From Odontesthes bonariensis (Eukaryota; Chordata; Actinopteri; Atheriniformes; Atherinopsidae): a DNA stretch of 64,000 bases. The DNA lies in NCBI RefSeq assembly GCF_027942865.1, contig NC_134526.1:3030470-3094469 (forward strand), written 5' to 3'. The notes beneath the pieces are model-generated. The model ran no database searches and had not been told where the DNA came from. It saw only the letters and a program-made list of their open reading frames with translations. A program made the translations under genes and the position numbers. Shown piece by piece: positions 1,790 to 34,440 of this stretch (the first letter of the stretch is position 1; each line of letters starts with the position of its first letter).

Positions 1790-1990
1790 TGAACGCATAT
1801 TGTTCTGAGAAGCAAAACGCTTTATTTTTTAAACCCCAGCCAACTAGCCGGACTACCTTCATCAACACCAAAACGAGGCTGGAACTCTGCTCACAGGACG
1901 CAGCAGGGGGTAAGAAGATGTTCAGAAATGATGCTGCTGATATGGGATGTTACACAGCTTCATGTCAAAAGAGGCGAACTATCCCTTTAA
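1790..1990. mobile_element. Right half of a TTAA-flanked MITE
   Basis: The segment matches the right half of the complete MITE at 21331-21713 and ends in the terminal repeat GGCGAACTATCCCTTTAA. The left half is replaced by the truncated LINE. TTAA ends are typical of piggyBac or Kolobok superfamily elements; I cannot choose between them from the termini. Confidence 0.7.
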
Positions 1991-2057
1991 TCATCTGATA
2001 TTTGAAAATTAAATATTTTTCAAAAGAACAACTTTAGTTATTCAATTCATTTTCATC

Positions 2058-2063
2058 TTTATT
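2058..2063 (-). terminator. Polyadenylation signal AATAAA of hsp70 copy 1
   Basis: TTTATT on the plus strand reads AATAAA on the gene strand, about 215 bases beyond the stop codon. The same hexamer is kept at 11326-11331, 21782-21787 and 29394-29399 in the other three units, so a short 3' UTR of about 220 bases is conserved across the array. Confidence 0.7.
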
Positions 2064-2277
2064 GCAATGCCCAGCACAGCAGGGATGAAAACACTCATCC
2101 AAACATTCGTCATTCTTATTCCACATGAACCAAACATACTGACATTAAATATAAATTTATAGTTTCTGTTCAAACTCCAGAAGATATTAAAAATATTTAC
2201 AGTTCTTAAAGTGTCTGTGGCACACGAGGCAGGAGCTCAGAGTTGAGCAGAGATCAGAGTCCACATTAAGGGCCACC

Positions 2278-4209
2278 TTAGTCCACCTCCTCAATAGTCG
2301 GCCCCTGGCTGTCGGCCCTCGCCTGCTCTCTGCACCCAGCGGGCATCCCTCCCTGGGGCATCCCTCCCTGGTACAGCTTGCTGATGACGGGCTGGCACAC
2401 CTTCTCCAGCTCTTTCTGCTTGTCTTGGTACTCGTCTTTCTCAGCCAGCTGGTTGTTCTCCAGCCAGGCGATGGTCTCCTCACACTTCTCGGCCACCTTC
2501 TTCTTGTCCTCCTCGCTGATTTTGCCCTTCAAGCTCTCGTCCTGCACGGTGCTCTTCACGCTGAAGGCGAAGGACTCCAGGGAGTTCCTGGCAGCCATTT
2601 TGTCCCTCTGCAGGTCGTCCTCGGCTTTGTATTTGTCAGCGTCCTGCACCATCCTCTCGATGTCCTCTTTGCTCAGTCGGCCCTTATCGTTGGTGATGGT
2701 GATCTTGTTCTCTTTGCCGGTGCTTTTGTCCACCGCCGACACGTTCAAGATCCCGTTGGCGTCGATGTCGAAGGTGACCTCGATCTGCGGGACCCCCCTG
2801 GGAGCGGGTGGGAGTCCCGTCAGCTCGAACTTGCCCAGCAGGTTGTTGTCCTTGGTCATGGCCCTCTCCCCTTCGTAGACCTGGATCAGGACCCCGGGCT
2901 GGTTGTCAGAGTAGGTGCTGAACACCTGGGTTTGTTTGGTGGGGATGGTGGTGTTGCGTTTGATCAGGGACGTCATCACCCCTCCGGCCGTCTCGATACC
3001 CAGGGACAGAGGCGCCACGTCCAGCAGCAGCAGGTCCTGAACGTTGCCCGAGGTGTCGCCCGAGAGGATGGCGGCCTGGACGGCGGCGCCGTAGGCCACC
3101 GCCTCGTCCGGGTTGATGCTCTTGTTCAGCTTCCGGCCGTTGAAGAAGTCCTGCAGGAGTTTCTGGATTTTGGGGATTCTGGTGGAGCCTCCCACCAGGA
3201 CCACGTCGTGGATCCGGCCCTTGTCCATTCTGGCGTCCCTCAGGGCTTTCTCCACCGGCTCCAAGGTTCCCCTGAACAGGTCGGAGCACAGCTCCTCAAA
3301 GCGAGCCCTGGTGATGGAGGTGTAGAAGTCGATGCCCTCAAACAGAGAGTCGATCTCGATGCTGGCCTGGGAGCTGGAGGACAGGGTCCTCTTGGCCCTC
3401 TCACAGGCTGTGCGCAGCCTCCTCAGGGCTCTCTTGTTCTGGCCGATGTCCTTCTTGTGCTTCCTCTTGAACTCCTCCACAAAGTGGTCGACCATGCGGT
3501 TGTCAAAGTCCTCTCCGCCCAGGTGAGTGTCTCCGGCCGTGGCCTTCACCTCAAAGATGCCGTCTTCGATGGTCAGGACGGACACGTCGAAGGTGCCCCC
3601 GCCCAGGTCAAAGATCAGGATGTTCCGTTCCCCGGACTTGCCTTTGTCCAGACCGTACGCGATGGCGGCCGCCGTCGGCTCGTTGATGATCCGCAGGACG
3701 TTGAGTCCCGCGATGACGCCTGCGTCTTTGGTGGCCTGTCGCTGGGAGTCGTTGAAGTACGCCGGGACCGTGATGACGGCGTTGGACACTTTTTGGCCCA
3801 GGTAGGCCTCGGCGATCTCCTTCATCTTCACCAGGACCATGGAGGAAACCTCCTCGGGGTAGAAGGCTTTGTCCTCCCCTTTGTACTCTACTTGTATTTT
3901 GGGCCTCCCTCCCTCTGAAACCACCTTGAAGGGCCAGTGCTTCATGTCCGCCTGCACCACCGGATCGTCACACTTTCTCCCGATCAGTCTCTTGGCATCA
4001 AACACAGTGTTGCTGGGGTTCATGGCCACCTGGTTCTTGGCTGCGTCCCCGATCAGCCTCTCGGTGTCGGTGAAGGCCACATAGCTGGGGGTGGTCCTGT
4101 TGCCCTGGTCGTTGGCGATGATCTCTACTTTTCCGTGCTGGAAAACCCCCACACAGGAGTAGGTGGTGCCCAGGTCGATGCCGATCGCTACGCCTTTGGC
4201 TGCAGACAT
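2278..4209 (-). CDS. hsp70: Heat-shock protein 70 kDa, copy 1 (inducible cytosolic type, 643 aa)
   Basis: ATP-dependent chaperone of cytosol and nucleus that binds exposed hydrophobic peptides with J-domain and exchange-factor partners. The CDS is intronless. It holds all three Hsp70 signatures: IDLGTTYS at residues 11-18, [12 protein letters not shown] near 199-210 and [13 protein letters not shown] near 337. The linker DLLLLDVAP, the substrate-binding domain, the helical lid and the C-terminal EEVD (the TPR-cochaperone tail of cytosolic Hsp70s) follow. Length matches the family (about 640 aa). The start is fixed by the conserved [15 protein letters not shown]-terminus. The tail has two GGMP units. 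Compared with the other copies it has Lys in FNGRKLNKS (about residue 360, where the others have Asp or Glu) and Arg in DKGRIHD. It looks intact and is the lowest-coordinate member of a four-gene head-to-tail array. Confidence 0.97.
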
Positions 4210-4860
4210 CTTGGCTGTGTTGGCTTTGTGTCCTAAAGGTGCAGAGACACAAATGAGCAGGAGCGTGAGAAAAGTAAGTGAACATCTGCAGCAGCTGTTG
4301 GAGCTTCAGCTGTTTTCTATCAAAAGAAACTGAGTCCCAGCATCAGAGGACTGAGGTCATACAGAGTGAATGCATCACTAAGTCTTTTTACTTCAAATCA
4401 CATGAATTAAATATATCAACACAGAACAAAAACAAAACCATTAAACTGTTAAATCTTCAACAAGACACAATTATTTAGATACACACAATAAGCTTCTGTT
4501 CACTTTAATGTAACAGAACCGCAAAATTAGTCAGAAAAGCAGGTTACTGACAGATTTGAACAGTTCTGTGATAAGTCAGAGCTTCTTGTATTCTTACTGT
4601 ACAAAACAAGTATGATTATACAAACATTTTTTTTTTTAAATAAAGTAACTAAGTAGTCGTAAATTATTTATTTTGGAGTTAACAAACAGAAAAATATACA
4701 TAAGTAGACCTTTAAAATAGGGAAAACTTTAGATGAGCACTTACTCTGGCTGGAAGTTAAAAATGAAGATGGATTTGAATTAAAATCAGTTCCTCTCCGC
4801 GGCGCAGATCGTCTTCAGCTCCGGTCTTCTGTGTCTCTTCTCGGATCTCTTCTTGTCTGA
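4210..4860 (-). other. hsp70 copy 1 5' UTR with probable intron
   Basis: On the gene strand a good donor (CCAGA|GTAAGTG, boundary 4745/4744) and a pyrimidine-rich acceptor (CTGCACCTTTAG, boundary 4233/4232) would remove a 512-base intron from the 5' UTR. The untranslated first exon would run from roughly 4860 to 4745, followed by a 23-base leader before the ATG. The first exon has no upstream ATG. Both splice sites are conserved in all four units, while the intron interior tolerates a 600-base transposon in units 2-4, which supports the model. Transcript start and splicing are inferred, not seen. A promoter lying directly before the ATG is the alternative. Confidence 0.65.
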
Positions 4861-4886
4861 ACTGCCGGTGTTCACCTCCAGCACTG

Positions 4887-5012
4887 TTTTTATTCTTCTT
4901 CGCTCCCTTCTCGTTGTTTCTCGAGGTTTCCATTGACTCTCTTGTCCAATCACAGCTCGGCGCGGCGCTCTGCGTCATGACGTCATCTGCTAGAAGTTTC
5001 TCCTGCCTTCTC
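4887..5012 (-). promoter_or_regulatory. hsp70 copy 1 heat-shock promoter
   Basis: Reading upstream on the gene strand: a TATA-like ATAAAAA at 4893-4887; a heat-shock element in 5-bp register (TTC 4908-4910, TTC 4918-4920, GAG 4923-4925, TTC 4928-4930); an inverted CCAAT box (CCAAT on plus strand 4946-4950); a perfect CRE palindrome TGACGTCA at 4978-4985; and a second heat-shock element (GAA 4992-4994, TTC 4997-4999, TTC 5007-5009). The phased NGAAN/NTTCN modules are the HSF1 binding pattern, so heat induction is expected. Spacing is preserved in all units. Confidence 0.75.
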
Positions 5013-6885
5013 GTCGCTCAGAGAAATCGTTAGAAGTGTTAAACAGAAAAATATTGTTTTAGATCATTTAAGATTCATCCTCTAAATACAGTAAGAGTGA
5101 CAACGAATATGGACAGACTGATGTTGAAAAGCTCCGTGAAAAATTCAAGTAAATCAGGACACAAATCTACTTTAAAACCAAACGTAAATTGAAAACTTCT
5201 TAATATTTCTTTAAAATCTAAAATCTGTTATTGGATAACAAGATTTAATCCATGCCGAACATTTTAGAAGACATTAGAGATTATTATGAATTAGCGGGTT
5301 CTTTTCACAACTCTGTAAAAATAACCAGGAGACCAGAAAATGCTTTAAAACGGTCATTTTTTAAATGGAGTCTTGGTGCACAGTGTCTATGTTTGGAGAA
5401 AGAGACATTTAATCAACATTTACATATAAAATGGGATATTTTTATTTGAAAGTGAGGTCAGTGTGTTGATATTTACGACAAGTGCTTAAAAATTCAAAAT
5501 AATTCACAAAACATAAGCCTTTTAGACTTTTTCTTCCATCAGAGTATACTCTTTAATAGTTTATTTGTGTATTTTTATTTATGGCCTCGTGCAGGTGCCA
5601 TATCTTTGTGTTGATGATCAACTCAAATAATTTGATTTTCATAGCACCAATTCCCAACAAAAGACATCTCAAAACACTTTAATTAAACTTGTTTAATTTA
5701 TTTTTAAAGTCCACACAGTTCGACCCAGTTATTTTCCAAATCAGCGTTTGGTTGCTGGAGCTGGTAAAGATAGTTTTCAATATTTAATGATGTGTTTCAG
5801 CTGCTCAGGTTGGTAAAACTGTCAAAGAAAACAGAGTTAAAGAGTAAAATGAGCACATGCTGATACTTTAGTTTCTTCTGGATGTGAAATATCTACATTA
5901 TTAGAATATAAACACAATTAATGGGATCCTAAATGTAAGGGGGAAATTATTACCATAAGGAGCATTAAAACCTTTTAATTAGGTACAAGATTTGGAAAAA
6001 CACAACTTTTTAACACTAGAAATGCAATCAAAACCAAAGACAAACAATGAATGTGAGAACATTTTCAAACTCTTTAAAGTCTCAGTTTTGTCTTCTTTAA
6101 GGAGTTGAACAAGGAGGCAGGCTGAACATTTACTGTAGATGTGACATAACTCTGTGTTCCTCGGCGTAGTTTGGAGATGAATTAGGTCAACAGGATGTGT
6201 TCATTCTCTCACCTGAGAGCTAAACATCTGCTGTAATATGAAAGGTGGTTAAACTAAAGTTCTACAGTGTTGTTATGTTAGTTGTTTCCACCAGATGTCA
6301 CCAAAGTTTGGATGTTTTAAATCAGCGAACAGCAGGAAAATATTGACCAGACTCAGATTTATTTTGTTTCCTGCCTTTATAACAACATTAATGATTTTCT
6401 TTTTAATTATTAGCAACATAGAAGATAATGCAGTTGTTGTTTTATTAAAACAGGAATAAATAAGTTGAACTGTTTGGTATTTATTAGTTGGGAATGTCGT
6501 AAACTTTATAAACTTACCTTCAGTCATTTTAACTTTATTTTTAAAGTCCAAACAGTTCGACCCAGTTATTTTCCAAATCAGCGTTTGGTTGCTGGAGCTG
6601 GTAAAGATAGTTTTCAATATTTAATGATGTGTTTCAGCTGCTCAGGTTGGTAAAACTGTCAAAGAAAACAGAGTTAAAGAGTAAAATGAGCACATGCTGA
6701 TACTTTAGTTTCTTCTGGATGTGAAATATCTACATTATTAGAATATAAACATAATTAATGGGATCCTAAATGTAAGGTGGAAATTATTACCATAAGGAAT
6801 ACTAAAACATTTTAATTAGGTACAAGATTTGGAAAAACACAACTTTTTAACACTAGAAATGCAATCAAAACCAATTAATCAAAAC
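5013..6885. other. hsp70 unit 1 upstream block with an internal direct repeat
   Basis: AT-rich sequence with no recognisable gene; small open frames here (for example 5252-5449 and 6273-6617) look accidental. It contains a direct repeat of about 335 bases, at 5698-6033 and again near 6533-6871, about 834 bases apart (both include the motif CAGTTATTTTCCAAATCAGC). The second copy runs straight into the LINE. Units 2 and 3 show the same arrangement. Unit 4 has only the first copy, followed by unique sequence, so the second copy marks the array junction. Confidence 0.75.
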
Positions 6886-8188
6886 CTTCACCAGCCCCAA
6901 CAGCCCAACAAGTGGAGTCTCCCCCAGCCCCAGTGGGAAACCCCCAGACTTCGCCCCCCCGGACCCCACCCAGCCCCCAGCTCTGGACTCCTCACTTCTG
7001 GATTTCCCTGACAGGATGAAGAGCCTTCTCAATATTGGAATCCAATTGACTCCACGCAAAAATCCCATATTCTTCCCCCCTAACATCCCACCTCATCCAG
7101 CCCCTCCCATTCCACCACGTCCATCACGTTGGAAACAACCCTCAAACAAAAGTCACCAAGCCCCCCCACCTCCTCTGAATCATCATATCTGTGAGTCTGA
7201 CTGATATGTGCCGGGTCCAGGCTGTAATACTGATATCAAGAATGCTCTTCCCCAGATAAAGTCAGGGCCCTATGGAGTTCAGACAGCCTTTTCAATCCCT
7301 GTGATGACAGCAGAGGTGTCAAGTAACAAAGTACAAATACTTTGTTACTGTACTTAAGTACACTTTTTATGTATCTGTACTTTACTCCATTACTTATTGT
7401 TCTGCCTATTTCTGACTTCTACTCATTACATTTTCACACAAGTATCTGTACTTTCTATTCCTTACATTTTCAAAACAAACAGCCTCGTTACTCTTGGCTT
7501 CAGTTTAATGTTTATGTATTTCAAATCATGTGCGCCATCCAATACAGATCAGTGGCGCCATCCACACCTAGTGAGAACGAGTGTAATTGGATGAATCATA
7601 TAACGCAAACACTCATCGGTTAGGCTATTCATCAAATTTGTGCTGACACACAAGGAAATCGTCATTCGTCAGAAGCAAGCAGATGTTCTACAAACTGCAA
7701 ACGTGAAGCGTCTAACATAATCTTAGTGTGTATGCAAAATTGTTGCACTCTCCTACTCCGTGCCATTTTCAGAGCGTTTTAGGTGCTCTGTATGTAGTGA
7801 TAAAGAGCTCATTTTCATTTCAGTTTTTGTCTTGACTGTCAGCTATGACAAAGGGGGGAACGTGCGTGTGTATAACATTTTTTCTTTGAATTTTTCAGGC
7901 AGTAAGACTTTTTGTTTGTTTTTTTGATGGGACCAGGGGCGTCTGTAGCTTGAGCAAACATTCGGGGCTGTAGCCCAGACATGAAAATAATTTTTAACGG
8001 GGGTCAGGGGGTTTTTCCCCCAGGATTTTTTTTAAAAAAAGGGGGTGTTAAAATGAAAATTTAACACAGTTCATGACCAGCTGCTTAACATGTTGAATGC
8101 CGAGCTGTGAATGTTGGCATTCATGTTTTGATAAAATGCCGAGATCCATATATCCAAATGCTGACATTGTGTCTTTGTTAGCCTAACG

Positions 8189-8960
8189 GTGCGTTCACAC
8201 CAAACGCGATGCGAATATTCGCACCGCCTTCATCGCGCGATCGTTGCCGCAGGTGTAAATTAAATTCCATCGCCTCAAACGCCTCTTTCGCGCGAGTAAA
8301 AAACGAGTGAATAGCTCAAGGGGCTATCCATGGCTGATCGCTCCTTGTACCTGCTGTGGCAGTCCGAGATTCGTCTGAAACGCACACGCCATCGTGTCTG
8401 GGTCAGTGACATCATCCGGTGGTGCATTCAGCTCGGATAATTTCATCGCCTTCTACAGGAGTTGCGTCTGGATGACGGCCGCCTCCAGCGGCACCCCAGG
8501 CCCACCAGGACCCAGCCCGACGACCCGCTCGGGAGGACCGGCGCCTGCAGCCGGCGTCCCGCCGAGAGATCACGGCACCGATCCTCCCGAGCGGGTCGTC
8601 GGGCTGGGTCCTGGTGGGCCTGGGGTGCCGCTGGAGGCGGCCGTCATCCAGACGGAACTCCTGGAAAAGGCGGTGATTTAATTTTTTTTATTTTATTTTG
8701 TCAGGGACCATGTGCAAAGTACATTAATTACAAAGTAAAGAGATGACCTGCACCAGATTGTAGCTTAGAAGCTAATTTCCATCTGCAGTCCCATCTGCAT
8801 GTCACAGACAGCGCCTGTCCATCTGTCTCCACGTCACTGTCGTCCAGAATCTCAACGCTGATAGGCTGTCTGGCGCGAATATATCGCCAAAGTTGGATTT
8901 TTTGAACTCGCGCGAATCGCATATTTTCAATCGCGCGGCGGCCACCGCATCACCGCACCG
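8189..8960 (+). mobile_element. PIF/Harbinger transposon remnant nested in the hAT
   Basis: It begins with GGTGCGTTCACACCAAACGC, a typical Harbinger-type terminus, and has CGCG-rich subterminal sequence at both ends (TTCGCGCGAGT near 8288, its complement near 8910). Between these lies the start of a HARBI1-like transposase: a frame reading RHRVWVSDIIR then LRLDDGRLQRH resembles the family's N-terminal LRLDDGRFQRYFR. The reading frame is broken and the catalytic nuclease part is missing. I do not see a matching right terminus, so the right boundary is approximate. Confidence 0.65.
8447..8672. repeat. Long GC-rich palindrome (91-nt arms, 44-nt loop)
   Basis: Arms 8447-8537 and 8582-8672 are reverse complements with about three mismatches, all near the outer ends. 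The arms are the first part of the Harbinger transposase reading frame, duplicated in opposite orientation. A transcript of either strand would fold into a long, nearly perfect GC-rich hairpin. Confidence 0.85.
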
Positions 8961-11057
8961 CTCCTCACTGCACCTCAGAATCCTGCGGTCTGAGCTGGTT
9001 ACAAAGTTGCATGATGACAGCAGCGCCGCGGTAGTCTATCACCGCTCAAAGTGTGGTCCCGTGACGGAGCTCTCCTTCTTTTTCTTCTTCTTCGTTCTTC
9101 TTCTTATTATTATTATTATACATATTTTTCTTTATGTCAGTCCAGAGAGATTCGGGGCTGAAGCCCCGAATGACCAGGTCTCTCGACGCGCATGGATGGG
9201 ACGAACATGAATACCTCACGACCTACCTCTTGAATACTACCTCACGTGTAATTAAATTCCAATAAAGTTTGAGAAAGAACATGCTCCTTGAGTGACTTTG
9301 TCTTTGACAGGAATGGTTTTATGATTGTTGTCTTGGGCCACATGTAGAACTAACCAGTTTTCAAATTAAGCTTGCAATTCGTATAGTGGCAGCTACCTTT
9401 GTGTGTGTTTTTTTTTTTTTTTTAAATTTAAAATTTTTTTAATTTAAAGGTTACTTTATGCTTTTATACTTTAAGTAGGTTTTGGAGCACATACTTTTTC
9501 ACTTTTACTTGAGTAAAGAGGTCAAGTTGATACTTCAACTTTTACCAGAGTGTTTTTAAACTGCAGTATCTATACTTCTACTTAAGTAACAAATGTGTGT
9601 ACTTTTGACACCACTGCATGACAGGTAACAGAAAAGTGGTCAAACTGGTGGGAAATAAAAAAGGTTCATTTAAATCTACCAATCTATTGAATATAGTGTG
9701 TCAACCCCGAAACACACCAGTATCACCTGTTGTCTCCACGAGATTAGCCCTACTCAATATCAGATCACTAGCCAACAAATCCCTCGTAGTAAATGACATG
9801 ATCATGACCTATAATCTAGACTTTTTATTTCTTAGTGAAACATGGCTGACTGAATGTAGCTGTGATACCATTCTCAATGAGGCCGCACCAACAAATTTCA
9901 GTTTTATCAATAAGTGTCGAAGTGGTAAGAAGGGCGGGGGAGTTGCCGCCATTTTTAAATCAGTCTTTCAGTGCAAAGAAATTTTACTTGGTGATTTTAG
10001 CTCTTTTGAATATCTCTGTTTTTTGTAAAGGGGGATCCAAAAGTTATCTTCCTAATCATTTATAGACCACCAAGATACCCAGGAACTTTCTTTGATGAGT
10101 TTGCTGAACTGCTGTAAGTTATCTGCACTGACTATAACTTTTTTATCATAACTGGGGATTTTAACATTCACATGGACAATAACATGGACACTAATGCCAA
10201 AGAACTCTGCTCTCTACTTGACACTTTTGGCCTCCTTCAACATGTGAATGGACCCACACATACTCGAGGCCACACACTGGATCTGGTTATCTCTAAAGGT
10301 GTTGACATTTCTTCTGTTGATATCAAGGACGTGGCGCTCTCTGATCATTTCTGTGTGTTCTCTGACTTACAGTTAACTCCAAACATTCAGTTAACCCGTG
10401 TGTCTGTTAGAAAAAGGTACATAAATGAGAATACCAGTGCTAAGTTTATGGAAGTTATAGCTATGTCATCAACTGCGAGTGCAGAGACAGTTGATGAACT
10501 CTTAGATAACTTTAACTTGAAAATCTCAAATGTCATGGATACTGTTGCACCTGTTAAAAATAAGATGATCCTGAGCAGAAAGCGAACACCATGGAGAAAC
10601 ACTATGATGGTAAAGGCCTTGAAAACAGAATGCAGGAAAGCAGATGAATGGCGAAAAACTAAACTTCAAACTCACCATGACCTCTACAAACAAAGTCTTT
10701 GTAATTTTAATCACGGGTTACTCCGGGCCAGACAGCAACACTTATCTGAAATGATTAATAAGATCATCAACAACACTCGTGCTCTGTTTGCTATGGTTAA
10801 TAAGCTGACAACCCCCCCAAACAGATAGTTTCAGAACTCTGTTCCACAGAGGAATGCAATGAATTTGTTTGTTTTTTCAATGAAAACATCAAATCTATAA
10901 GGATAAATATCAACATAATAAAATGACGCAATCCTTAAAACCACCTAGGAATCAATCAACTATGATGTCAGAATTCAATACAGTTGACCAAAAAACCAAA
11001 GAAGAAACAGTCCAGCATCTTAAACAATCGACATCCTGTCTTCGACATCTACTCTTT

Positions 11058-11545: not shown

Positions 11546-13537
11546 TTAGTCCACCTCCTCAATAGTCGGCCCCTGGCTGTCGGCCCTCGCCTGCTCTCTG
11601 CACCCAGCGGGCATCCCTCCCTGGGGCATCCCTCCCTGGGGCATCCCTCCCTGGGGCATCCCTCCCTGGGGCATCCCTCCCTGGGGCATCCCTCCCTGGT
11701 ACAGCTTGCTGATGACGGGCTGGCACACCTTCTCCAGCTCTTTCTGCTTGTCTTGGTACTCGTCTTTCTCAGCCAGCTGGTTGTTCTCCAGCCAGGCGAT
11801 GGTCTCCTCACACTTCTCGGCCACCTTCTTCTTGTCCTCCTCGCTGATTTTGCCCTTCAAGCTCTCGTCCTGCACGGTGCTCTTCACGCTGAAGGCGAAG
11901 GACTCCAGGGAGTTCCTGGCGGCCATTTTGTCCCTCTGCAGGTCGTCCTCGGCTTTGTATTTGTCAGCGTCCTGCACCATCCTCTCGATCTCCTCTTTGC
12001 TCAGTCGGCCCTTATCGTTGGTGATGGTGATCTTGTTCTCTTTGCCGGTGCTTTTGTCCACCGCCGACACGTTCAAGATCCCGTTGGCGTCGATGTCGAA
12101 GGTGACCTCGATCTGCGGGACCCCCCTGGGAGCGGGTGGGAGTCCCGTCAGCTCAAACTTGCCCAGCAGGTTGTTGTCCTTGGTCATGGCCCTCTCCCCT
12201 TCGTAGACCTGGATCAGGACCCCGGGCTGGTTGTCAGAGTAGGTGCTGAACACCTGGGTTTGTTTGGTGGGGATGGTGGTGTTGCGTTTGATCAGGGACG
12301 TCATCACCCCTCCGGCCGTCTCGATACCCAGGGACAGAGGCGCCACGTCCAGCAGCAGCAGGTCCTGAACGTTGCCCGAGGTGTCGCCCGAGAGGATGGC
12401 GGCCTGGACGGCGGCGCCGTAGGCCACCGCCTCGTCCGGGTTGATGCTCTTGTTCAGGTCCCGGCCGTTGAAGAAGTCCTGCAGGAGTTTCTGGATTTTG
12501 GGGATTCTGGTGGAGCCTCCCACCAGGACCACGTCGTGGATCTGGCCCTTGTCCATTCTGGCGTCCCTCAGGGCTTTCTCCACCGGCTCCAAGGTTCCCC
12601 TGAACAGGTCGGAGCACAGCTCCTCAAAGCGAGCCCTGGTGATGGAGGTGTAGAAGTCGATGCCCTCAAACAGAGAGTCGATCTCGATGCTGGCCTGGGA
12701 GCTGGAGGACAGGGTCCTCTTGGCCCTCTCACAGGCTGTGCGCAGCCTCCTGAGGGCTCTCTTGTTCTGGCTGATGTCCTTCTTGTGCTTCCTCTTGAAC
12801 TCCTCCACAAAGTGGTCGACCATGCGGTTGTCAAAGTCCTCTCCGCCCAGGTGAGTGTCTCCGGCCGTGGCCTTCACCTCAAAGATGCCGTCTTCGATGG
12901 TCAGGACGGACACGTCGAAGGTGCCCCCGCCCAGGTCAAAGATCAGGATGTTCCGTTCCCCGGACTTGCCTTTGTCCAGACCGTACGCGATGGCGGCCGC
13001 CGTCGGCTCGTTGATGATCCTCAGGACGTTGAGTCCCGCGATGACGCCTGCGTCTTTGGTGGCCTGTCGCTGGGAGTCGTTGAAGTACGCCGGGACCGTG
13101 ATGACGGCGTTGGACACTTTTTGGCCCAGGTAGGCCTCGGCGATCTCCTTCATCTTCACCAGGACCATGGAGGAAACCTCCTCGGGGTAGAAGGCTTTGT
13201 CCTCCCCTTTGTACTCTACTTGTATTTTGGGCCTCCCTCCCTCTGAAACCACCTTGAAGGGCCAGTGCTTCATGTCCGCCTGCACCACCGGATCGTCACA
13301 CTTTCTCCCGATCAGTCTCTTGGCATCAAACACAGTGTTGCTGGGGTTCATGGCCACCTGGTTCTTGGCTGCGTCCCCGATCAGCCTCTCGGTGTCGGTG
13401 AAGGCCACATAGCTGGGGGTGGTCCTGTTGCCCTGGTCGTTGGCGATGATCTCTACTTTTCCGTGCTGGAAAACCCCCACACAGGAGTAGGTGGTGCCCA
13501 GGTCGATGCCGATCGCTACGCCTTTGGCTGCAGACAT
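11546..13537 (-). CDS. hsp70: Heat-shock protein 70 kDa, copy 2 (663 aa, expanded GGMPQ tail)
   Basis: Full-length cytosolic Hsp70 with the same start, three signatures, linker and EEVD end as copy 1. It is 20 residues longer because the C-terminal disordered tail has six GGMP units instead of two, encoded by a tandem array of a 15-bp unit at about 11610-11700. Other differences from its siblings are Ser in KKDISQNK (Gly in the rest), Asp in FNGRDLNKS (the usual vertebrate residue) and LSKEEIER shared with copy 3. No break is seen. Function should equal the other copies; the lengthened tail lies between the lid and the EEVD motif, so a change in cochaperone spacing is possible but unproven. 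Confidence 0.97.
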
Positions 13538-21330: not shown

Positions 21331-21713
21331 TTAAAGGGATAGTTCGCCTCTTTTGGCTGCTGATGCCTGCCGACAGCCGCGCCTGTTACGGTGTTTGCTG
21401 CTCGGTCTGCACAGCAGGCAGTGATACGAAGGGAGAGAAAATAGGGCCAAGCGATTGTGAGGTCTGACTTTTTCCTGTAGAACGATTTTGTGATGCAAAT
21501 GTATTACTCTGTTGAACGCATATTGTTTTGAGAAGCAAAACGCTTTATTTTTTAAACCCCAGCCAACTAGCCGGACTACCTTCATCAACACCAAAACGAG
21601 GCTGGAACTCTGCTCACAGGACGCAGCAGGGGGTAAGAAGATGTTCAGAAATGATGTTGCTGATATCGGATGTCACACAGCTTCATGTCAAAAGAGACGA
21701 ACTATCCCTTTAA
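21331..21713. mobile_element. Complete TTAA-flanked MITE (383 bp)
   Basis: TTAAAGGGATAGTTCGCCTC on the left is mirrored by GACGAACTATCCCTTTAA on the right, with TTAA at both outer ends. The right half is the piece fused to LINEs in units 1, 2 and 4. A related copy lies in intron 4 of the protease gene (48348-49038). TTAA target use points to the piggyBac or Kolobok superfamilies. Confidence 0.8.
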
Positions 21714-22001: not shown

Positions 22002-23948
22002 TTAGTCCACCTCCTCAATAGTCGGCCCTTGGCTGTCAGCCCTCGCCTGCTCTCTGCACCCAGCGGGCATCCCTCCCTGGGGCATCCCTCCCTGGGGCAT
22101 CCCTCCCTGGTACAGCTTGCTGATGACGGGCTGGCACACCTTCTCCAGCTCTTTCTGCTTGTCTTGGTACTCGTCTTTCTCAGCCAGCTGGTTGTTCTCC
22201 AGCCAGGCGATGGTCTCCTCACACTTCTCGGCCACCTTCTTCTTGTCCTCCTCGCTGATTTTGCCCTTCAAGCTCTCGTCTTGCACGGTGCTCTTCACGC
22301 TGAAGGCGAAGGACTCCAGGGAGTTCCTGGCGGCCATTTTGTCCCTCTGCAGGTCGTCCTCGGCTTTGTATTTGTCAGCGTCCTGCACCATCCTCTCGAT
22401 CTCCTCTTTGCTCAGCCGGCCCTTATCGTTGGTGATGGTGATCTTGTTCTCTTTGCCGGTGCTTTTGTCCACTGCCGACACGTTCAAGATCCCGTTGGCG
22501 TCGATGTCGAAGGTGACCTCGATCTGCGGGACCCCCCTGGGAGCGGGTGGGAGTCCCGTCAGCTCGAACTTGCCCAGCAGGTTGTTGTCCTTGGTCATGG
22601 CCCTCTCCCCTTCGTAGACCTGGATCAGGACCCCGGGCTGGTTGTCAGAGTAGGTGCTGAACACCTGGGTTTGTTTGGTGGGGATGGTGGTGTTGCGTTT
22701 GATCAGGGACGTCATCACCCCTCCGGCCGTCTCGATACCCAGGGACAGAGGCGCCACGTCCAGCAGCAGCAGGTCCTGAACGTTGCCCGAGGTGTCGCCC
22801 GAGAGGATGGCGGCCTGGACGGCGGCGCCGTAGGCCACCGCCTCGTCCGGGTTGATGCTCTTGTTCAGCTCCCGGCCGTTGAAGAAGTCCTGCAGGAGTT
22901 TCTGGATTTTGGGGATTCTGGTGGAGCCTCCCACCAGGACCACGTCGTGGATCTGGCCCTTGTCCATTTTGGCGTCCCTCAGGGCTTTCTCCACCGGCTC
23001 CAAGGTTCCCCTGAACAGGTCGGAGCACAGCTCCTCAAAGCGAGCCCTGGTGATGGAGGTGTAGAAGTCGATGCCCTCAAACAGAGAGTCGATCTCGATG
23101 CTGGCCTGGGAGCTGGAGGACAGGGTCCTCTTGGCCCTCTCACAGGCTGTGCGCAGCCTCCTCAGGGCTCTCTTGTTCTGGCCGATGTCCTTCTTGTGCT
23201 TCCTCTTGAACTCCTCCACAAAGTGGTCGACCATGCGGTTGTCAAAGTCCTCTCCGCCCAGGTGAGTGTCTCCGGCCGTGGCCTTCACCTCAAAGATGCC
23301 GTCTTCGATGGTCAGGACGGACACGTCGAAGGTGCCCCCGCCCAGGTCAAAGATCAGGATGTTCCGTTCCCCGGACTTGCCTTTGTCCAGACCGTACGCG
23401 ATGGCGGCCGCCGTCGGCTCGTTGATGATCCGCAGGACGTTGAGTCCCGCGATGACGCCCGCGTCTTTGGTGGCCTGTCGCTGGGAGTCGTTGAAGTACG
23501 CCGGGACCGTGATGACGGCGTTGGACACTTTTTGGCCCAGGTAGGCCTCGGCGATCTCCTTCATCTTCACCAGGACCATGGAGGAAACCTCCTCGGGGTA
23601 GAAGGCTTTGTCCTCCCCTTTGTACTCTACTTGTATTTTGGGCCTCCCTCCCTCTGAAACCACCTTGAAGGGCCAGTGCTTCATGTCCGCCTGCACCACC
23701 GGATCGTCACACTTTCTCCCGATCAGTCTCTTGGCATCAAACACGGTGTTGCTGGGGTTCATGGCCACCTGGTTCTTGGCTGCGTCCCCGATCAGCCTCT
23801 CGGTGTCGGTGAAGGCCACATAGCTGGGGGTGGTCCTGTTGCCCTGGTCGTTGGCGATGATCTCTACTTTTCCGTGCTGGAAAACCCCCACACAGGAGTA
23901 GGTGGTGCCCAGGTCGATGCCGATCGCTACGCCTTTAGCTGCAGACAT
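22002..23948 (-). CDS. hsp70: Heat-shock protein 70 kDa, copy 3 (648 aa)
   Basis: Intact cytosolic Hsp70 with all signature motifs and the EEVD terminus. The tail has three GGMP units, one more than copies 1 and 4. It carries DAKMDKGQ and FNGRELNKS, shared with copy 4, and LSKEEIER, shared with copy 2, so it mixes variants of both neighbours. Synonymous changes are also few. Expected role and regulation are as for the other copies. Confidence 0.97.
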
Positions 23949-25215
23949 CTTGGCTGTGTTGGCTTTGTGTCCTAAAGGTGCAGAGACACAAATGAGCAGG
24001 AGCGTGAGAAAAGTAAGTGAACATCTGCAGCAGCTGTTGGAGCTTCAGCTGTTTTCTATCAAAAGAAACTGAGTCCCAGCATCAGAGGACTGAGGTCATA
24101 CAGAGTGAATGCATCACTAAGTCTTTTTACTTCAAATCACATGAATTAAATATATCAACAAAGAACAAAAACAAAACCATTTAACTGTTAAATCTTCAAC
24201 AAGACACAATTATTTAGATTAGAGATACTCATTGCGCGGCTCCTCAAGCTTTAATTGGCGGCTCGCACTCGCATAGTAGCTTATAACAATCTGGTAAAAA
24301 TAACAATATTTTTTTTCAAATAACATACAGAGAATACTGCACAGTATTAAGTATTTTTATTAATTATTAATTAAGGCTTAATGGTGTTTCCTAAAGAGGG
24401 AACTGTTAAACCTGGCAACGCAGCCCGCTTAAACCACCTCAGACTTGACCGCAGAGCACGCTAGCTCCTTTAGCCAGCGCGAGATGCAGGCACCATGGAT
24501 CGGTTTTTAATTAAAAAAGGGCAAAAATCAGCACAAAAACCATGCTCATCTTGAATGTCTCACTATGATTACAACAACAAACTACAAATACAACATGAAG
24601 AAAGTCGAGCACATGCACGCCAGCTTCCACTCATCCCAGTATTAAGGTAAATGTGGTCTGAATTGAAAATGTATTGGCTGTGTTGTTCCTTTTTTTGTGG
24701 GATGTTTTATATGTAGAAATGCATATTTGCAAAAGGGGACTTTAGTATGTTGTGGTAAAAGTGGCTCTTCCCTTGATTTTGCTGCCAATGTGGCTCTGGT
24801 GAAATAAATTAGTGAGTATCACTGGTTTAGATATACACAATAAGCTTCTGTTCACTTTAATGTTACAGAACCGCAAAATTAGTCAGAAAAGCAGGTTACT
24901 GACAGATTTGAACAGTTCTGTGATAAGTCAGAGCTTCTTGTATTCTTACTGTACAAAACAAGTATGATTATACAAACATTTTATTTTTAAATAAAATAAC
25001 TAAGTAGTCATAAATTATTTATTTTGGAGTTAACAAACAGAAAAATATACATAAGTAGACCTTTAAAATAGGGAAAACTTTAGATGAGCACTTACTCTGG
25101 CTGGAAGTTAAAAATGAAGATGGATTTGAATTAAAATCAGTTCCTCTCCGCGGCGCAGCTCGTCTGCAGCTCGTCTTCAGCTCCGGTCTTCTGTGTCTCT
25201 TCTCGGATCTCTTCT
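23949..25215 (-). other. hsp70 copy 3 5' UTR with probable intron
   Basis: Conserved donor (boundary 25096/25095) and acceptor (boundary 23972/23971) predict a 1124-base intron that includes the hAT MITE at 24220-24824. The first exon has a private 12-base duplication (CAGCTCGTCTG repeated near 25157-25180). Confidence 0.6.
24220..24824. mobile_element. hAT MITE in the hsp70 copy 3 5' UTR intron
   Basis: Same element at the same site as 13809-14408, with flanks ATTTAGAT and GTTTAGAT. The identical insertion point and the shared mismatch in the right target copy show that units 2-4 inherited one insertion rather than gaining it separately. Confidence 0.85.
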
Positions 25216-27265: not shown

Positions 27266-29124
27266 ACCTTCACCAGCCCCAACAGCCCAACAGGCGGAGT
27301 CTCCCCCAGCCCCAGTGGGAAACCCCCAGCCTTCGCCCCCCCGGACCCCACCCAGCCCCCAGCTCTGGACTCCTCACTTCTGGATTTCCCTGACAGGATG
27401 AAGAGCCTTCTCAATATTGGAATACAATTGACTCCACGCCAAAATCCCATATTCTTCCCCCCTAACATCCCACCTCATCCAGCCCCTCCCATTCCACCAC
27501 GTCCATCACGTTGGAAACAACCCTCAAACAAAAGTCACCAAGCCTCCCCACCTCCTGTGAATCATCATATCTGTGAGTCTGACTGATATGTGCCGGGTCC
27601 AGGCTGTAATACTGATATCAAGAATGCTCTTCCCCAGATAAAGTCAGGGCCCTATGGAGTTCAGACAGCCTTTTCAATCCCTGTGATGACAGCTAACAGA
27701 AAAGTGGTCAAACTGGTGAGAAATAAAACAGGTTCAGTTAAATCTACCAATCTATTGAATATAGTGTGTCAACCCCGAAACACACCAGTATCACCTGTTG
27801 TCTCCACGAGATTAGCCCTACTCAATATCAGATCACTAGCCAACAAATCCCTCGTAGTAAATGACATGATCACGACCTATAATCTAGACTTTTTATTTCT
27901 TAGTGAAACATGGCTGACTGAATGTAGCTGTGATACCATTCTCAATGAGGCCGCACCAACAAATTTCAGTTTTATCAATAAGTGTGGAAGTGGTAAGAAG
28001 GGCGGGGGAGTTGCCGCCATTTTTAAATCAGTCTTTCAGTGCAAAGAAATTTTACTTGGTGATTTTAGCTCTTTTGAATATCTCTGTTTTTTAGTAAAGG
28101 GAGATCCAAAAGTTATCTTCCTAATCATTTATAGACCACCAAGATACCCAGGAACTTTCTTTGCTGAGTTTGCTGAACTGCTGTAAGTTATCTGCACTGA
28201 CTATAACTTTTTTATCATAACTGGGGATTTTAACATTCACATGGACAATAACATGGACACTAATGCCAAAGAACTCTGCTCTCTACTTGACACTTTTGGC
28301 CTCCTTCAACATGTGAATGGACCCACACATACTCGAGGCCACACACTGGATCTGGTTATCTCTAAAGGTGTTGACATTTCTTCTGTTGATATCAAGGACT
28401 TGGCGCTCTCTGATCATTTCTGTCTGTTCTCTGACTTACAGTTAACTCCAAACATTCAGTTAACCCGTGTGTCTGTTAGAAAAAGGTACATAAATGAGAA
28501 TACCAGTGCTAAGTTTATGGAAGTTATAGCTGTCATCAACTGCGAGTGCAGAGACAGTTGATGAACTCTTAGATAACTTTAACTTGAAAATCTCAAATGT
28601 CATGGATACTGTTGCACCTGTTAAAAATAAGATGATCTTGAGCAGAAAGCGAACACCATGGAGGAACACTATTATGGTAAAGGCTTTGAAAACAGAATGC
28701 AGGAAAGCAGATGAATGGCGAAAAACTAAACTTCAAACTCACCATGACCTCTACAAACAAAGTCTTTGTAATTTTAACCACGGGTTACTCCGGGCTAGAC
28801 AGCAACACTTATCTGAAATGATTAATAAGATCATCAACAACACTCGTGCTCTGTTTGCTATGGTTAATAAGCTGACAACCCCCCCAAAACAGATAGTTTC
28901 AGAACTCTGTTCCACAGAGGAATGCAATGAATTTGTTTGTTTTTTCAATGAAAACATCAAATCTATAAGGCTAAATATCAACATAATAAAATGACGCAAT
29001 CCTTAAAACCACCTAGGAATCAATCAACTATGATGTCAGAATTCAATACAGTTGACCAAAAAACCATAGAAGAAACAGTCCAGCATCTTAAACCATCGAC
29101 ATCCTGTCTTCGACATCTACTCTT
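27266..29124 (+). mobile_element. L2-like LINE fragment between hsp70 copies 3 and 4
   Basis: It includes the proline-rich leader and the endonuclease region with no hAT insertion. The frame 27590-28186 is open through IIYRPPRYPGTF and then stops at CTGTAAGTTATC, the stop shared with unit 2. A private 2-base loss near 28530 shifts the frame again. It is fused at about 29124 to the MITE half, as in units 1 and 2, so the RT is missing. Confidence 0.85.
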
Positions 29125-29125
29125 T

Positions 29126-29613: not shown

Positions 29614-31545
29614 TTAGTCCACCTCCTCAATAGTCGGCCCCTGGCTGTCGGCCCTCGCCTGCTCTCTGCACCCAGCGGGCATCCCTCCCTGGGGCATCCC
29701 TCCCTGGTACAGCTTGCTGATGACGGGCTGGCACACCTTCTCCAGCTCTTTCTGCTTGTCTTGGTACTCGTCTTTCTCAGCCAGCTGGTTGTTCTCCAGC
29801 CAGGCGATGGTCTCCTCACACTTCTCGGCCACCTTCTTCTTGTCCTCCTCGCTGATTTTGCCCTTCAAGCTCTCGTCCTGCACGCTGCTCTTCACGCTGA
29901 AGGCGAAGGACTCCAGGGAGTTCCTGGCAGCCATTTTGTCCCTCTGCAGGTCGTCCTCGGCTTTGTATTTGTCAGCGTCCTGCACCATCCTCTCGATGTC
30001 CTCTTTACTCAGTCGGCCCTTATCGTTGGTGATGGTGATCTTGTTCTCTTTGCCGGTGCTTTTGTCCGCCGCCGACACGTTCAAGATCCCGTTGGCGTCG
30101 ATGTCGAAGGTGACCTCGATCTGCGGGACCCCCCTGGGAGCGGGTGGGAGTCCCGTCAGCTCGAACTTGCCCAGCAGGTTGTTGTCCTTGGTCATGGCCC
30201 TCTCCCCTTCGTAGACCTGGATCAGGACCCCGGGCTGGTTGTCAGAGTAGGTGCTGAACACCTGGGTTTGTTTGGTGGGGATGGTGGTGTTGCGTTTGAT
30301 CAGGGAAGTCATCACCCCTCCGGCCGTCTCGATACCCAGGGACAGAGGCGCCACGTCCAGCAGCAGCAGGTCCTGAACGTTGCCCGAGGTGTCGCCCGAG
30401 AGGATGGCGGCCTGGACGGCGGCGCCGTAGGCCACCGCCTCGTCCGGGTTGATGCTCTTGTTCAGCTCCCGGCCGTTGAAGAAGTCCTGCAGGAGTTTCT
30501 GGATTTTGGGGATTCTGGTGGAGCCTCCCACCAGGACCACGTCGTGGATCTGGCCCTTGTCCATTTTGGCGTCCCTCAGGGCTTTCTCCACCGGCTCCAA
30601 GGTTCCCCTGAACAGGTCGGAGCACAGCTCCTCAAAGCGAGCCCTGGTGATGGAGGTGTAGAAGTCGATGCCCTCAAACAGAGAGTCGATCTCGATGCTG
30701 GCCTGGGAGCTGGAGGACAGGGTCCTCTTGGCCCTCTCACAGGCTGTGCGCAGCCTCCTCAGGGCTCTCTTGTTCTGGCCGATGTCCTTCTTGTGCTTCC
30801 TCTTGAACTCCTCCACAAAGTGGTCGACCATGCGGTTGTCAAAGTCCTCTCCGCCCAGGTGAGTGTCTCCGGCCGTGGCCTTCACCTCAAAGATGCCGTC
30901 TTCGATGGTCAGGACGGACACGTCGAAGGTGCCCCCGCCCAGGTCAAAGATCAGGATGTTCCGTTCCCCGGACTTGCCTTTGTCCAGACCGTACGCGATG
31001 GCGGCCGCCGTCGGCTCGTTGATGATCCGCAGGACGTTGAGTCCCGCGATGACGCCCGCGTCTTTGGTGGCCTGTCGCTGGGAGTCGTTGAAGTACGCCG
31101 GGACCGTGATGACGGCGTTGGACACTTTTTGGCCCAGGTAGGCCTCGGCGATCTCCTTCATCTTCACCAGGACCATGGAGGAAACCTCCTCGGGGTAGAA
31201 GGCTTTGTCCTCCCCTTTGTACTCTACTTGTATTTTGGGCCTCCCTCCCTCTGAAACCACCTTGAAGGGCCAGTGCTTCATGTCCGCCTGCACCACCGGA
31301 TCGTCACACTTTCTCCCGATCAGTCTCTTGGCATCAAACACAGTGTTGCTGGGGTTCATGGCCACCTGGTTCTTGGCTGCGTCCCCGATCAGCCTCTCGG
31401 TGTCGTTGAAGGCCACATAGCTGGGGGTTGTCCTGTTGCCCTGGTCGTTGGCGATGATCTCTACTTTTCCGTGCTGGAAAACCCCCACACAGGAGTAGGT
31501 GGTGCCCAGGTCGATGCCGATCGCTACGCCTTTGGCTGCAGACAT
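29614..31545 (-). CDS. hsp70: Heat-shock protein 70 kDa, copy 4 (643 aa)
   Basis: Intact cytosolic Hsp70 with all signatures and EEVD. It has two GGMP units, as in copy 1. Private changes are Asn for Thr in AFNDTERL (ATPase domain, about residue 47), Ala for Val in SAADKSTG (substrate-binding domain) and Ser for Thr in [14 protein letters not shown] and GRELNKS are shared with copy 3, LSKEDIER with copy 1. It is the outermost unit on the upstream side, and its 5' flank continues into unique sequence, so it probably keeps the ancestral upstream context. Confidence 0.97.
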
Positions 31546-32812
31546 CTTGGCTGTGTTGGCTTTGTGTCCTAAAGGTGCAGAGACACAAATGAGGTGGAGC
31601 GTGAGAAAAGTAAGTGAACATCTGCAGCAGCTGTTGGAGCTTCAGCTGTTTTCTATCAAAAGAAACTGAGTCCCAGCATCAGAGGACTGAGGTCATACAG
31701 AGTGAATGCATCATCAAGTCTTTTTACTTCAAATCAAATGAATTAAATATATCAACAAAGAACAAAAACATAACCATTAAACTGTTAAATCTTCAACAAG
31801 ACACAATTATTTAGATTAGAGATACTCATTGCGCGGCTCCTCAAGCTTTAATTGGCGGCTCGCACTCGCATAGTAGCTTATAACAATCTGGTAACAATAA
31901 CAATATTTTTTTTCAAATAACATACAGAGAATACTGCACAGTATTAAGTATTTTTATTAATTATTAATTAAGGCTTAATGGTGTTTCCTAAAGAGGGAAC
32001 TGTTAAACCTGGCAACGCAGCCCACTTAAACCACCTCAGACTTGACCGCAGAGCACGCTAGCTCCTTTAGCCAGCGCGAGATGCAGGCACCATGGATCGG
32101 TTTTTAATTAAAAAAGGGCAAAAATCAGCACAAAAACCATGCTCATCTTGAATGTCTCACTATGATTACAACAACAAACTACAACTACAACATGAAGAAA
32201 GTCGAGCACATGCACGCCAGCTTCCGCTCATCCCAGTATGAAGGTAAATGTGGTCCTAATTGAAAATGTATTGGCTGTGTTGTTTCTTTTTTTGTGGGAT
32301 GTTTTATATGTAGAAATGCATATTTGCAAAAGGGGACTTTAGTATGTTGTGGTAAAAGTGGCTCTTCCCTTGATTTTGCTGCCAATGTGGCTCTGGTGAA
32401 ATAAATTAGTGAGTATCACTGGTTTAGATATACACAATAAGCTTCTGTTCACTTTAATGTTACAGAACCGCAAAATTAGTCAGAAAAGCAGGTTACTGAC
32501 AGATTTGAACAGTTCTGTGATAAGTCAGAGCTTCTTGTATTCTTACTGTACAAAACAAGTATGATTATACAAACATTTTATTTTTAAATAAAATAACTAA
32601 GTAGTCATAAATTATTTATTTTGGAGTTAACAAACAGAAAAATATACATAAGTAGACCTTTAAAATAGGGAAAACTTTAGATGAGCACTTACTCTGGCTG
32701 GAAGTTAAAAATGAAGATGGATTTGAATTAAAATCTGTTCCTCTCCGCGGCGCAGCTCGTCTTCAGCTCCGGTCTTCTGTGTCTCTTCTCGGATCTCTTC
32801 TTGTCTGAACTG
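31546..32812 (-). other. hsp70 copy 4 5' UTR with probable intron
   Basis: Donor (boundary 32693/32692) and acceptor (boundary 31569/31568) are conserved, giving a 1124-base intron that contains the hAT MITE at 31817-32421. Confidence 0.6.
31817..32421. mobile_element. hAT MITE in the hsp70 copy 4 5' UTR intron
   Basis: Third copy of the element described at 13809-14408, at the same site with the same flanking target copies. Confidence 0.85.
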
Positions 32813-32834
32813 CCGGTGTTCACCTCCAGCACTG

Positions 32835-32958
32835 TTTTTATTCTTCTTCGCTCCCTTCTCGTTGTTTCTCGAGCTTTCCGTTGACTCTCTTGTGCAATCA
32901 CAGCTCGGCGCGGCGCTCTGCGTCATGACGTCATCTGCGAGAAGTTTCTCCTGCCTTC
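32835..32958 (-). promoter_or_regulatory. hsp70 copy 4 heat-shock promoter, CCAAT box altered
   Basis: TATA-like 32841-32835, proximal heat-shock element (TTC 32856, TTC 32866, GAG 32871, TTC 32876), CRE 32926-32933, distal heat-shock element (GAA 32941, TTC 32946, TTC 32956). The inverted CCAAT box is GCAAT here (32894-32898), the only one of the four units in which it is changed. Confidence 0.75.
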
Positions 32959-34440
32959 TCGTCGCTCAGAGAAATCGTTAGAAGTGTTAAACAGAAAAAT
33001 ATTGTTTTAGATCATTTAAGATTCATCCTCTAAATACAGTAAGAGTGACAGCGAATATGGACAGACTGATGTTGAAAAGCTCCGTGAAAAATTCAAGTAA
33101 ATCAGGAAACAAATCTACTTTTAAACCAAACGTTAATTGAAAACTTCTTAATATTCCTTTAAAATCTAAAATCTGTTATTGGATAACAAGATTTCATCAA
33201 TGCCGAACATTTTAGAAGACATTAGAGATTATAATGAATTACCGGGTTCTTTTCACAACTCTGTAAAAATAACCAGGAGAATAGAAAACGTTTTAAAACG
33301 GTCATTTTTTAAATGAAGTCTTGGTGCACAGTGTCTATGTTTGGAGAAAGAGACATTTAATCAACATTTACATATAAAATTGGATATTTTTATTTGAAAG
33401 TGAGGTCAGTGTGTTGATATTTACGACAAGTGCTTGAAGATTCAAAATAATTCACAAAACATAAGCCTTTTAGACTTTTTCTTCCATTCAGATTATACTC
33501 TTTAATAGTTACTGTGTGTTTATTTGTGTATTTTTATTTATGGTTTGGCCTCATGCAGGTGCCATATCTTTGTGTTGATGATCAGCTCAAATAATTTGAT
33601 TTTCATAGCACCAATGCCCAACAAAAGACATCTCAAAGCACTTTAATTAAACTTGTTTAATTTATTTTTAAAAAGTCCGAACAGTTCAACCCAGTTATTT
33701 TCCAAATCAGCGTTTGGTTGCTGGAGCTGGTAAAGATAGTTTTCAATATTTAATGATGTGTTTCAGCTGCTCAGGTTGGTAAAACTGTCAAAGAAAACAG
33801 AGTTAAATAGTAAAATGAACACATGCTGTTACTTTAGTTTCTTCTGGATGTGAAATATCTACATTAGTAGAATATAAACATAATTAATGGGATCCTAAAT
33901 GTAAGGTGGAAATTATTACCACAAGGAGCATTAAAACCTTTTAATTAGGTACAAGAATGGAAAAACACAACTTTTTAACACTAGAAATGAAATCAAAACC
34001 AAAGACAAACAATGAATCTGAGAACATTTTCAAACTCTTTAAAGTCTCAGTTTTGTCTTCTTTAAGGAGTTGAACAAGGAGGCAGGCTGAATATTTACTG
34101 TAGATGTGACATAACTCTGTGTTCCTCGGCGTAGTTTGGAGATGAATTAGGTCAACAGGATGTGTTCATTCTCTCACCTGAGAGCTAAACATCTGCTGTA
34201 ATATGAAAGGTGGTAAAACTAAAGTTCTACAGTGTTGTTATGTTAGTTGTTTCCACCAGATGTCACTAAAGTTTGGATGTTTTAAATCAGCGAACAGCAG
34301 GAAAATATTGACCAGACTCAGATTTATTTTGTTTCCTGCCTTTATAACAACATTAATGATTTTCTTTTTAATTATTAGCAACATAGAAGATAATGTAGTT
34401 GTTGTTTTGTTAAAACAGGGATAAATAAGTTGAATTGTTT
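32959..34440. other. hsp70 unit 4 upstream block
   Basis: Homologous to the upstream blocks of units 1-3, with only one copy of the 335-base repeat (about 33660-33995). Homology ends near 34440-34500, where units 1-3 instead join the second repeat copy. No gene seen. Confidence 0.7.

What the first reader, a model, noticed from the sequence alone, without database searches (positions are those of the whole stretch)
1790..34440. Four-gene head-to-tail hsp70 array with LINE spacers
Four near-identical Hsp70 genes on one strand share promoter, 5' UTR intron and 3' flank, separated by copies of one L2-like LINE. The repeated LINE and MITE blocks give long homology for unequal crossover, so copy number may vary between individuals. 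The ATG-to-ATG distances (9328, 10411, 7597) differ mainly by transposon content.
Basis: partly seen in the sequence, partly recalled or inferred. Interest (0 to 1): 0.7.

Follow-up and report, generated by a model that had tools for sequence, protein, structure and literature searches.

The report
Recent tandem array of hsp70 genes
Four nearly identical, intact heat-shock protein genes sit one after another because a whole block (gene plus transposon-filled spacer) was copied repeatedly, and the copies have since swapped pieces; tandem hsp70 clusters of this sort are already known in fish and flies, so this is a good new example rather than a new kind of thing.

Summary
In detail: four intact cytosolic-type hsp70 genes lie head to tail on the minus strand, with exactly the ATG spacings given. 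Two corrections. (1) The LINE copies are not separate insertions: LINE, 3' flank, gene, 5'UTR intron, promoter and upstream block form one repeated unit with identical junctions, and the array runs off the left window edge, so four is a minimum. (2) A ~606-bp hAT-like MITE lies in the 5'UTR intron of h2, h3 and h4, while h1 has the empty site.

Transposon insertions and one deletion explain nearly all spacing differences. Two markers (intron MITE in units 2, 3, 4; LINE-tail deletion in units 1, 2, 4) do not fit one duplication tree without an extra event, and 16 of 32 informative sites conflict with the best tree, against about 0.3 expected. The units have therefore most likely exchanged sequence, as unequal crossover or gene conversion predicts. 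Coding dS (0.9-2.6%) overlaps flank divergence (1.7-3.3%), so the array is young as a whole. Copy-number variation between individuals is plausible but was not testable. New member of a known kind; interest 0.25.

The parts
2278..4209 (-). hsp70 gene h1, 643 aa, 2 GGMP units, ends EEVD
11546..13537 (-). hsp70 gene h2, 663 aa, 6 GGMP units, ends EEVD
22002..23948 (-). hsp70 gene h3, 648 aa, 3 GGMP units, ends EEVD
29614..31545 (-). hsp70 gene h4, 643 aa, 2 GGMP units, ends EEVD
4210..4744 (-). h1 5'UTR tail and about 0.51-kb 5'UTR intron without the MITE; empty site at 4469-4488
   Evidence: donor and acceptor strings at -539 and -28 from the ATG; empty site. Splicing itself not tested
13809..14409 (.). 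hAT-like MITE (about 0.6 kb, 7-of-8 matching target duplication) in the h2 5'UTR intron; ends approximate
   Evidence: the hAT label is recalled
24220..24825 (.). same MITE in the h3 5'UTR intron; ends approximate
31817..32422 (.). same MITE in the h4 5'UTR intron; ends approximate
4886..5001 (-). putative h1 promoter: two HSE-like sites (-792, -722 from ATG), ATTGG box (-743), TATA-like AATAAAAAC (-685); same layout in h2, h3, h4 (h4 reads ATTGC)
6521..6546 (.). unit junction J (unit end joined to a truncated second copy of block A); the same 26 bases at 16452 and 26903
34494..34510 (.). right end of the array; homology to the other units stops at 34506
7311..9617 (.). M2: 2307-bp hAT-like insertion in spacer S1; its right part is also in S0 (1-348); empty site in S2 (17227) and S3 (27680)
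349..1786 (+). LINE 5' part (endonuclease region), spacer S0, cut by deletion D
9618..11054 (+). LINE 5' part, spacer S1, same deletion D junction
17233..20276 (+). LINE sequence in spacer S2; keeps the RT region (18476-19102) and two LINE 3' ends (19803, 20262); has its own internal rearrangement
27686..29122 (+). LINE 5' part, spacer S3, same deletion D junction
21330..21713 (.). TTAA-ended MITE with both ends in the 3' flank of h3 (spacer S2); its left part is missing in S0, S1 and S3
1..348 (.). right part of the S0 copy of insertion M2: the array continues left of the window; a fifth gene is predicted there
   Evidence: the fifth gene is inference

Best explanation
A recent tandem array of at least four stress-inducible, cytosolic-type hsp70 genes in an animal genome (probably a teleost; inferred). 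One block (LINE, 3' flank, hsp70, 5'UTR intron, promoter, upstream block A) was first duplicated head to tail by a join with little or no homology (junction J). It then multiplied by homologous unequal crossing over, carrying the LINE along. hAT-like elements inserted, and one deletion removed the LINE tail in some units. Later unequal crossover or gene conversion reshuffled the units, so that different parts of a unit have different closest relatives. Function: several near-identical genes, each with its own promoter, would raise the dose of inducible Hsp70. Shown: genes, unit structure, shared junctions, marker and site conflicts. Inferred: order of events, heat induction, dose effect, ongoing copy-number change.
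For: Four intact ORFs, 4 of 4 full-length HSP70 matches. Junction J occurs three times with the same 26 bases, and the unbroken right edge once; the block A/LINE junction is the same in 3 of 3 places inside the window; the deletion D junction is in 3 of 4 spacers. Intron MITE in units 2, 3, 4 with the empty site in 1; deletion D in units 1, 2, 4, while unit 3 keeps both MITE ends and LINE 3' ends: two derived states that overlap without nesting. dS 0.009-0.026, dN 0.002-0.005, dN below dS in 6 of 6 pairs (no formal test). Two HSE-like sites before a TATA-like box in 4 of 4; of 500 base shuffles per gene, 0.2-0.6% reached that count.
Against: A runs test on the order of informative sites is not significant (p 0.16), so long clean conversion tracts are not shown; a post hoc contrast (13|24 at 10 of 13 sites far upstream, 6 of 19 elsewhere) gives p 0.03 only. 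HSE-like sites each have one core mismatch, and a stricter scan found none. h4 has a changed ATTGG box. Precise loss of the MITE in h1 would remove the structural conflict, though not the site conflict. In 4 of 6 pairs dS is below upstream divergence, for h1-h4 nominally so (p 0.011, uncorrected), so some extra homogenisation of the genes is not excluded. Expression, other individuals and assembly correctness were not testable.
Confidence: 0.85

Rival explanations
1. Assembly artefact: allelic haplotypes or repeat units were wrongly strung together, inflating the copy number.
For: Units differ by only a few per cent, a range that heterozygosity can approach in some fish (recalled); no reads were available.
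Against: No N in the window; junction J is present three times and needs units joined head to tail; unit-specific structural states differ; conflicting sites are spread over four units.
Confidence: 0.08
2. Independent LINE and MITE insertions between already old hsp70 genes, with the genes kept alike by selection only.
For: Counting all sites, the genes are clearly more alike (0.5-0.8%) than the upstream block (1.7-3.3%).
Against: LINE copies share their ends and differ by 13-19 of about 1255 aligned sites; dS (0.9-2.6%) overlaps the flank range; the junctions are shared.
Confidence: 0.02
3. Simple stepwise tandem duplication with no later exchange; the conflicts come from parallel mutation and precise loss of the MITE in h1.
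For: Runs test not significant; hAT elements can excise (recalled).
Confidence: 0.07

Closest known systems
Teleost hspa1a/hsp70 tandem clusters (mudskipper Boleophthalmus pectinirostris, zebrafish, stickleback, Tetraodon; Fugu cluster of five, Lim and Brenner 1999)
   Same: Several hsp70 genes in tandem; numbers differ between species, which the authors say may mean independent origins (passages of PMC6406738; the Fugu paper was seen only as a reference there and is not held)
   Different: The passages I saw give no unit anatomy; here the spacers are one duplicated LINE-bearing unit with insertion markers, and an intronic MITE separates h1 from h2-h4
hsp70 cluster of the soldier fly Stratiomys singularior
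   Same: Four tandem hsp70 genes plus one inverted, unequal spacing, a Mariner fragment in intergenic DNA, conversion among genes, structural polymorphism between clones (abstract and passages of PMC3071340)
   Different: There coding regions are homogenised while intergenic regions share only short homology; here the whole unit is homologous and coding dS overlaps the flanks
Drosophila hsp70 arrays
   Same: Tandem duplication, concerted evolution, transposons near heat-shock promoters (passage and reference list, search listing of PMC2793543; otherwise recalled)
   Different: Other gene order and other transposons (recalled)
afgp locus of Antarctic notothenioids
   Same: Segmental tandem duplication of a gene block marked by a transposon motif, varying gene copy number (abstract and passages of PMC13131655)

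Membership tests
Cytosolic Hsp70 (HSPA1-type) | Full-length HSP70 domain | tested here: met
   4 of 4: PF00012 positions 1-599 of 599; best solved match of h1 is Heat shock 70 kDa protein 1A, 7kw7
Cytosolic Hsp70 (HSPA1-type) | C-terminal EEVD and GGMP repeats | tested here: met
   4 of 4 proteins end in EEVD, with 2, 6, 3 and 2 GGMP units; that these define the type is recalled
Cytosolic Hsp70 (HSPA1-type) | Uninterrupted coding sequence | tested here: met
   Single open frames, no internal stop
Cytosolic Hsp70 (HSPA1-type) | Heat-shock elements in the promoter | tested here: inconclusive
   Two HSE-like sites with one core mismatch each in 4 of 4; stricter scan found none
Cytosolic Hsp70 (HSPA1-type) | Heat-induced expression | not testable with these tools
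   No expression data
Teleost hsp70 tandem cluster | Two or more hsp70 genes in tandem | tested here: met
   Four same-strand genes, dS 0.009-0.026
Teleost hsp70 tandem cluster | Conserved neighbours (hsp70.1 and hsp70.2 separated by nlk2, cdipt and TAO2 in spotted seabass) | tested here: inconclusive
   I scanned 16 of the 247 right-flank open frames of 45 aa or more with Pfam: trypsin-like and PRY-SPRY exons and transposon domains, none of those neighbours; small exons would be missed, and the left flank is outside the window
Teleost hsp70 tandem cluster | Host is a teleost | not tested
   Inferred from recalled transposon families and gene content; the genome search did not complete
Concerted-evolution array | Sequence exchange among units | tested here: met
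   Structural and site conflicts; clustering of the sites not significant (p 0.16)
Copy-number-variable locus | Different unit numbers in different individuals | not testable with these tools
   One sequence only

The most novel reading that the evidence does not exclude
The array is a live copy-number locus in which unequal exchange is still adding and removing whole hsp70 units, and the intronic MITE splits the genes into two expression classes (h1 without it, h2-h4 with it), so that individuals differ in Hsp70 dose and induction.
Probability: 0.25. Interest if true: 0.5.

Novelty: new member of a known kind. Interest (0 to 1): 0.25.

Why it matters
The unit-specific markers (intron MITE, spacer hAT-like insertion, deletion D, GGMP number) make this array readable: units can be told apart in long reads, so exchange and copy number could be measured directly and tied to heat tolerance.

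Tried and rejected
Independent LINE insertions: rejected, same junctions and homologous positions. Promoter loss in h1: first suspected from the ~600-bp gap upstream of its ATG; rejected, the gap is the intronic MITE and the putative promoter lies beyond it. Strong coding-only homogenisation: not supported, since dS overlaps upstream divergence, with 1 of 6 pairs (h1-h4) nominally lower at p 0.011 uncorrected. Block A as a transposon: rejected as the main reading, because the left end of its second copy is the unit junction J. Where that second copy (A2) came from stays inference: the three A2 copies differ by 1-3 of about 345 sites, the four A1 copies by 6-14 of 314-346. A local duplication followed by LINE insertion as the origin of A2 was considered; I saw no match between S2 beyond the LINE and the units or right flank to support it. 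Relatives in viral contigs: the hsp70 query gave one hit (64% identity), the LINE query none; uninformative. tRNA scan (bacterial settings) and Rfam scan of the window: nothing. Papers: 9 searches. I saw passages of PMC6406738, PMC10531354, PMC8646100, PMC3071340, PMC13131655 and PMC7466066, no whole text. Against a general trend: no tandem hsp70 duplication was seen in Sebastiscus, and in the Antarctic rockcod hspa4b and hspa13 were duplicated but hsc71, hspa6 and hspa12a were not. Columns left out of the site count: all columns with a gap in any unit (so the MITE, absent in h1), the extra DNA of S2, insertion M2, and stretches outside the four chosen blocks.

Full report
What is there. Four intact hsp70 genes lie on the minus strand at 2278-4209, 11546-13537, 22002-23948 and 29614-31545. 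4 of 4 match the Pfam HSP70 model over its full length, and the best solved match of h1 is Heat shock 70 kDa protein 1A. All four proteins end in EEVD and carry 2, 6, 3 and 2 GGMP units. A tblastn of h1 finds no other hsp70-like sequence in the window at E 1e-3. ATG-to-ATG distances are exactly those reported.

Unit anatomy. Self-alignment shows that the repeated unit is not the gene alone. Left to right it is: LINE, 3' flank with a TTAA-ended MITE or its remnant, gene, 5'UTR intron, exon 1 and putative promoter, and an upstream block A1 with about 0.5 kb more. A junction J follows, then a second, truncated copy A2, which runs into the next LINE. J is present with the same 26 bases at 6521, 16452 and 26903, while at 34494 the sequence runs on into DNA not shared with the other units. 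The left window edge lies inside the array: 1-348 matches 9272-9617. Four genes is therefore a minimum, and a fifth is predicted to the left (inference).

Gene parts. All four genes have the same donor and acceptor strings of a 5'UTR intron, a TATA-like AATAAAAAC, an ATTGG box (ATTGC in h4) and two HSE-like sites, each with one core mismatch; a stricter scan found none. In 500 base shuffles per gene of the 200 bp before the TATA-like box, 0.2-0.6% reached two such sites. The first AATAAA lies 215 bp after each stop, before the 3' MITE. Splicing and transcription were not tested.

Three structural markers. M1: a ~606-bp hAT-like MITE in the intron of h2, h3 and h4, with a 7-of-8 matching target duplication; h1 has a single target copy. 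M2: a 2307-bp hAT-like insertion in spacer S1, whose right part is also in S0; S2 and S3 have the empty site. D: a deletion joining mid-LINE to the inside of the 3' MITE in S0, S1 and S3; S2 keeps both MITE ends, the RT region and LINE 3' ends. Each ATG-to-ATG distance splits into upstream, spacer, 3' flank and coding parts: 3101+3743+493+1991, 3702+4273+490+1946 and 3745+1428+493+1931. Against the h3-h4 distance, h1-h2 gains 2315 in the spacer (M2 is 2307) and loses 644 upstream (M1 is 606); h2-h3 gains 2845 in the spacer, the DNA that S2 keeps.

Exchange between units. M1 groups units 2, 3 and 4; D groups units 1, 2 and 4. Both read as derived states (an insertion with target duplication; a truncation), and they overlap without nesting, so one tree cannot hold both without an extra event. 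They lie about 2.7 kb apart, either side of the gene. Independently, 5940 ungapped columns in four blocks hold 32 two-against-two sites: 16 for 13|24, 8 for 12|34 and 8 for 14|23. Against a simple picture of long conversion tracts, a runs test on site order gave p 0.16; a post hoc contrast of far-upstream sites with the rest gave p 0.03.

Age and selection. Pairwise dS is 0.009-0.026, upstream divergence 0.017-0.033, intron 0.005-0.024, and the LINE block differs at 13-19 of about 1255 sites. In 4 of 6 pairs dS is below upstream divergence, in 2 above; only h1-h4 differs nominally (p 0.011, uncorrected). So the unit as a whole is young, and some extra homogenisation of the genes is neither shown nor excluded. 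dN is 0.002-0.005, below dS in 6 of 6 pairs, as expected for genes under constraint.

How it most likely works. A founding head-to-tail duplication made junction J with little homology. Homologous misalignment of 7-10 kb units then allowed unequal crossing over to change copy number and conversion to mix markers. Each gene carries its own putative promoter, so the likely effect is more inducible Hsp70 per stress. Expression and variation between individuals were not testable.

What is known. Tandem hspa1a genes are reported in mudskipper (seven hspa1a-type copies; the expanded hspa1a genes in tandem clusters), zebrafish, stickleback and Tetraodon, with species-specific numbers (passages of PMC6406738); none in Sebastiscus (passage of PMC10531354). 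A soldier-fly cluster shows a similar mix of tandem genes, transposon fragments and conversion (abstract and passages of PMC3071340). This locus is a new member of that kind. I did not see this exact array in the nine paper searches named under Tried and rejected, but I do not know the species, so that says little.

Counts were gone over again. Mended: number of flank frames scanned (16 of 247), part ends, the statement on dS against flanks, the seabass neighbours, the rockcod result and the palindrome identity. Pfam was run on the other three genes.

Noticed in passing
52241-53442: A 55-bp minisatellite of about 22 copies inside what looks like a LINE C-terminal ORF (recalled likeness); because 55 is not a multiple of 3 the same peptide cycles through the frames with a 55-aa period, and long ORFs stay open in more than one frame. 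The weak Pfam matches to it look spurious.
   Followed up: no
47938-48348, 51152-51610, 53859-54161: Exons of a trypsin-like serine protease gene on the plus strand, matching consecutive parts of the Pfam Trypsin profile (49-139, 135-177, 177-220), with a MITE and the 55-bp minisatellite between them.
   Followed up: partly
61768-62358: PRY-SPRY (B30.2) exon on the minus strand.
   Followed up: no
21330-21713 and 48348-49038: Two copies of one TTAA-ended MITE; an inner segment of about 92 bp is in opposite orientation relative to the rest in the two copies.
   Followed up: no
38045-39574: 23-bp satellite of about 66 copies whose unit contains CCCTAACC, resembling telomere repeats.
   Followed up: no
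8443-8676: Palindrome of about 234 bp, arms 88% identical, inside the spacer hAT-like insertion M2.
   Followed up: no
47497-47817 and 44033-44314: Transposon remnants: a zf-BED frame (E 4e-8) and a weak DDE_3 match below its cut-off.
   Followed up: no
L001:2344-3561: An IMG/VR contig encodes an Hsp70 64% identical to h1 over residues 205-613; viral gene or host contamination was not examined.
   Followed up: no
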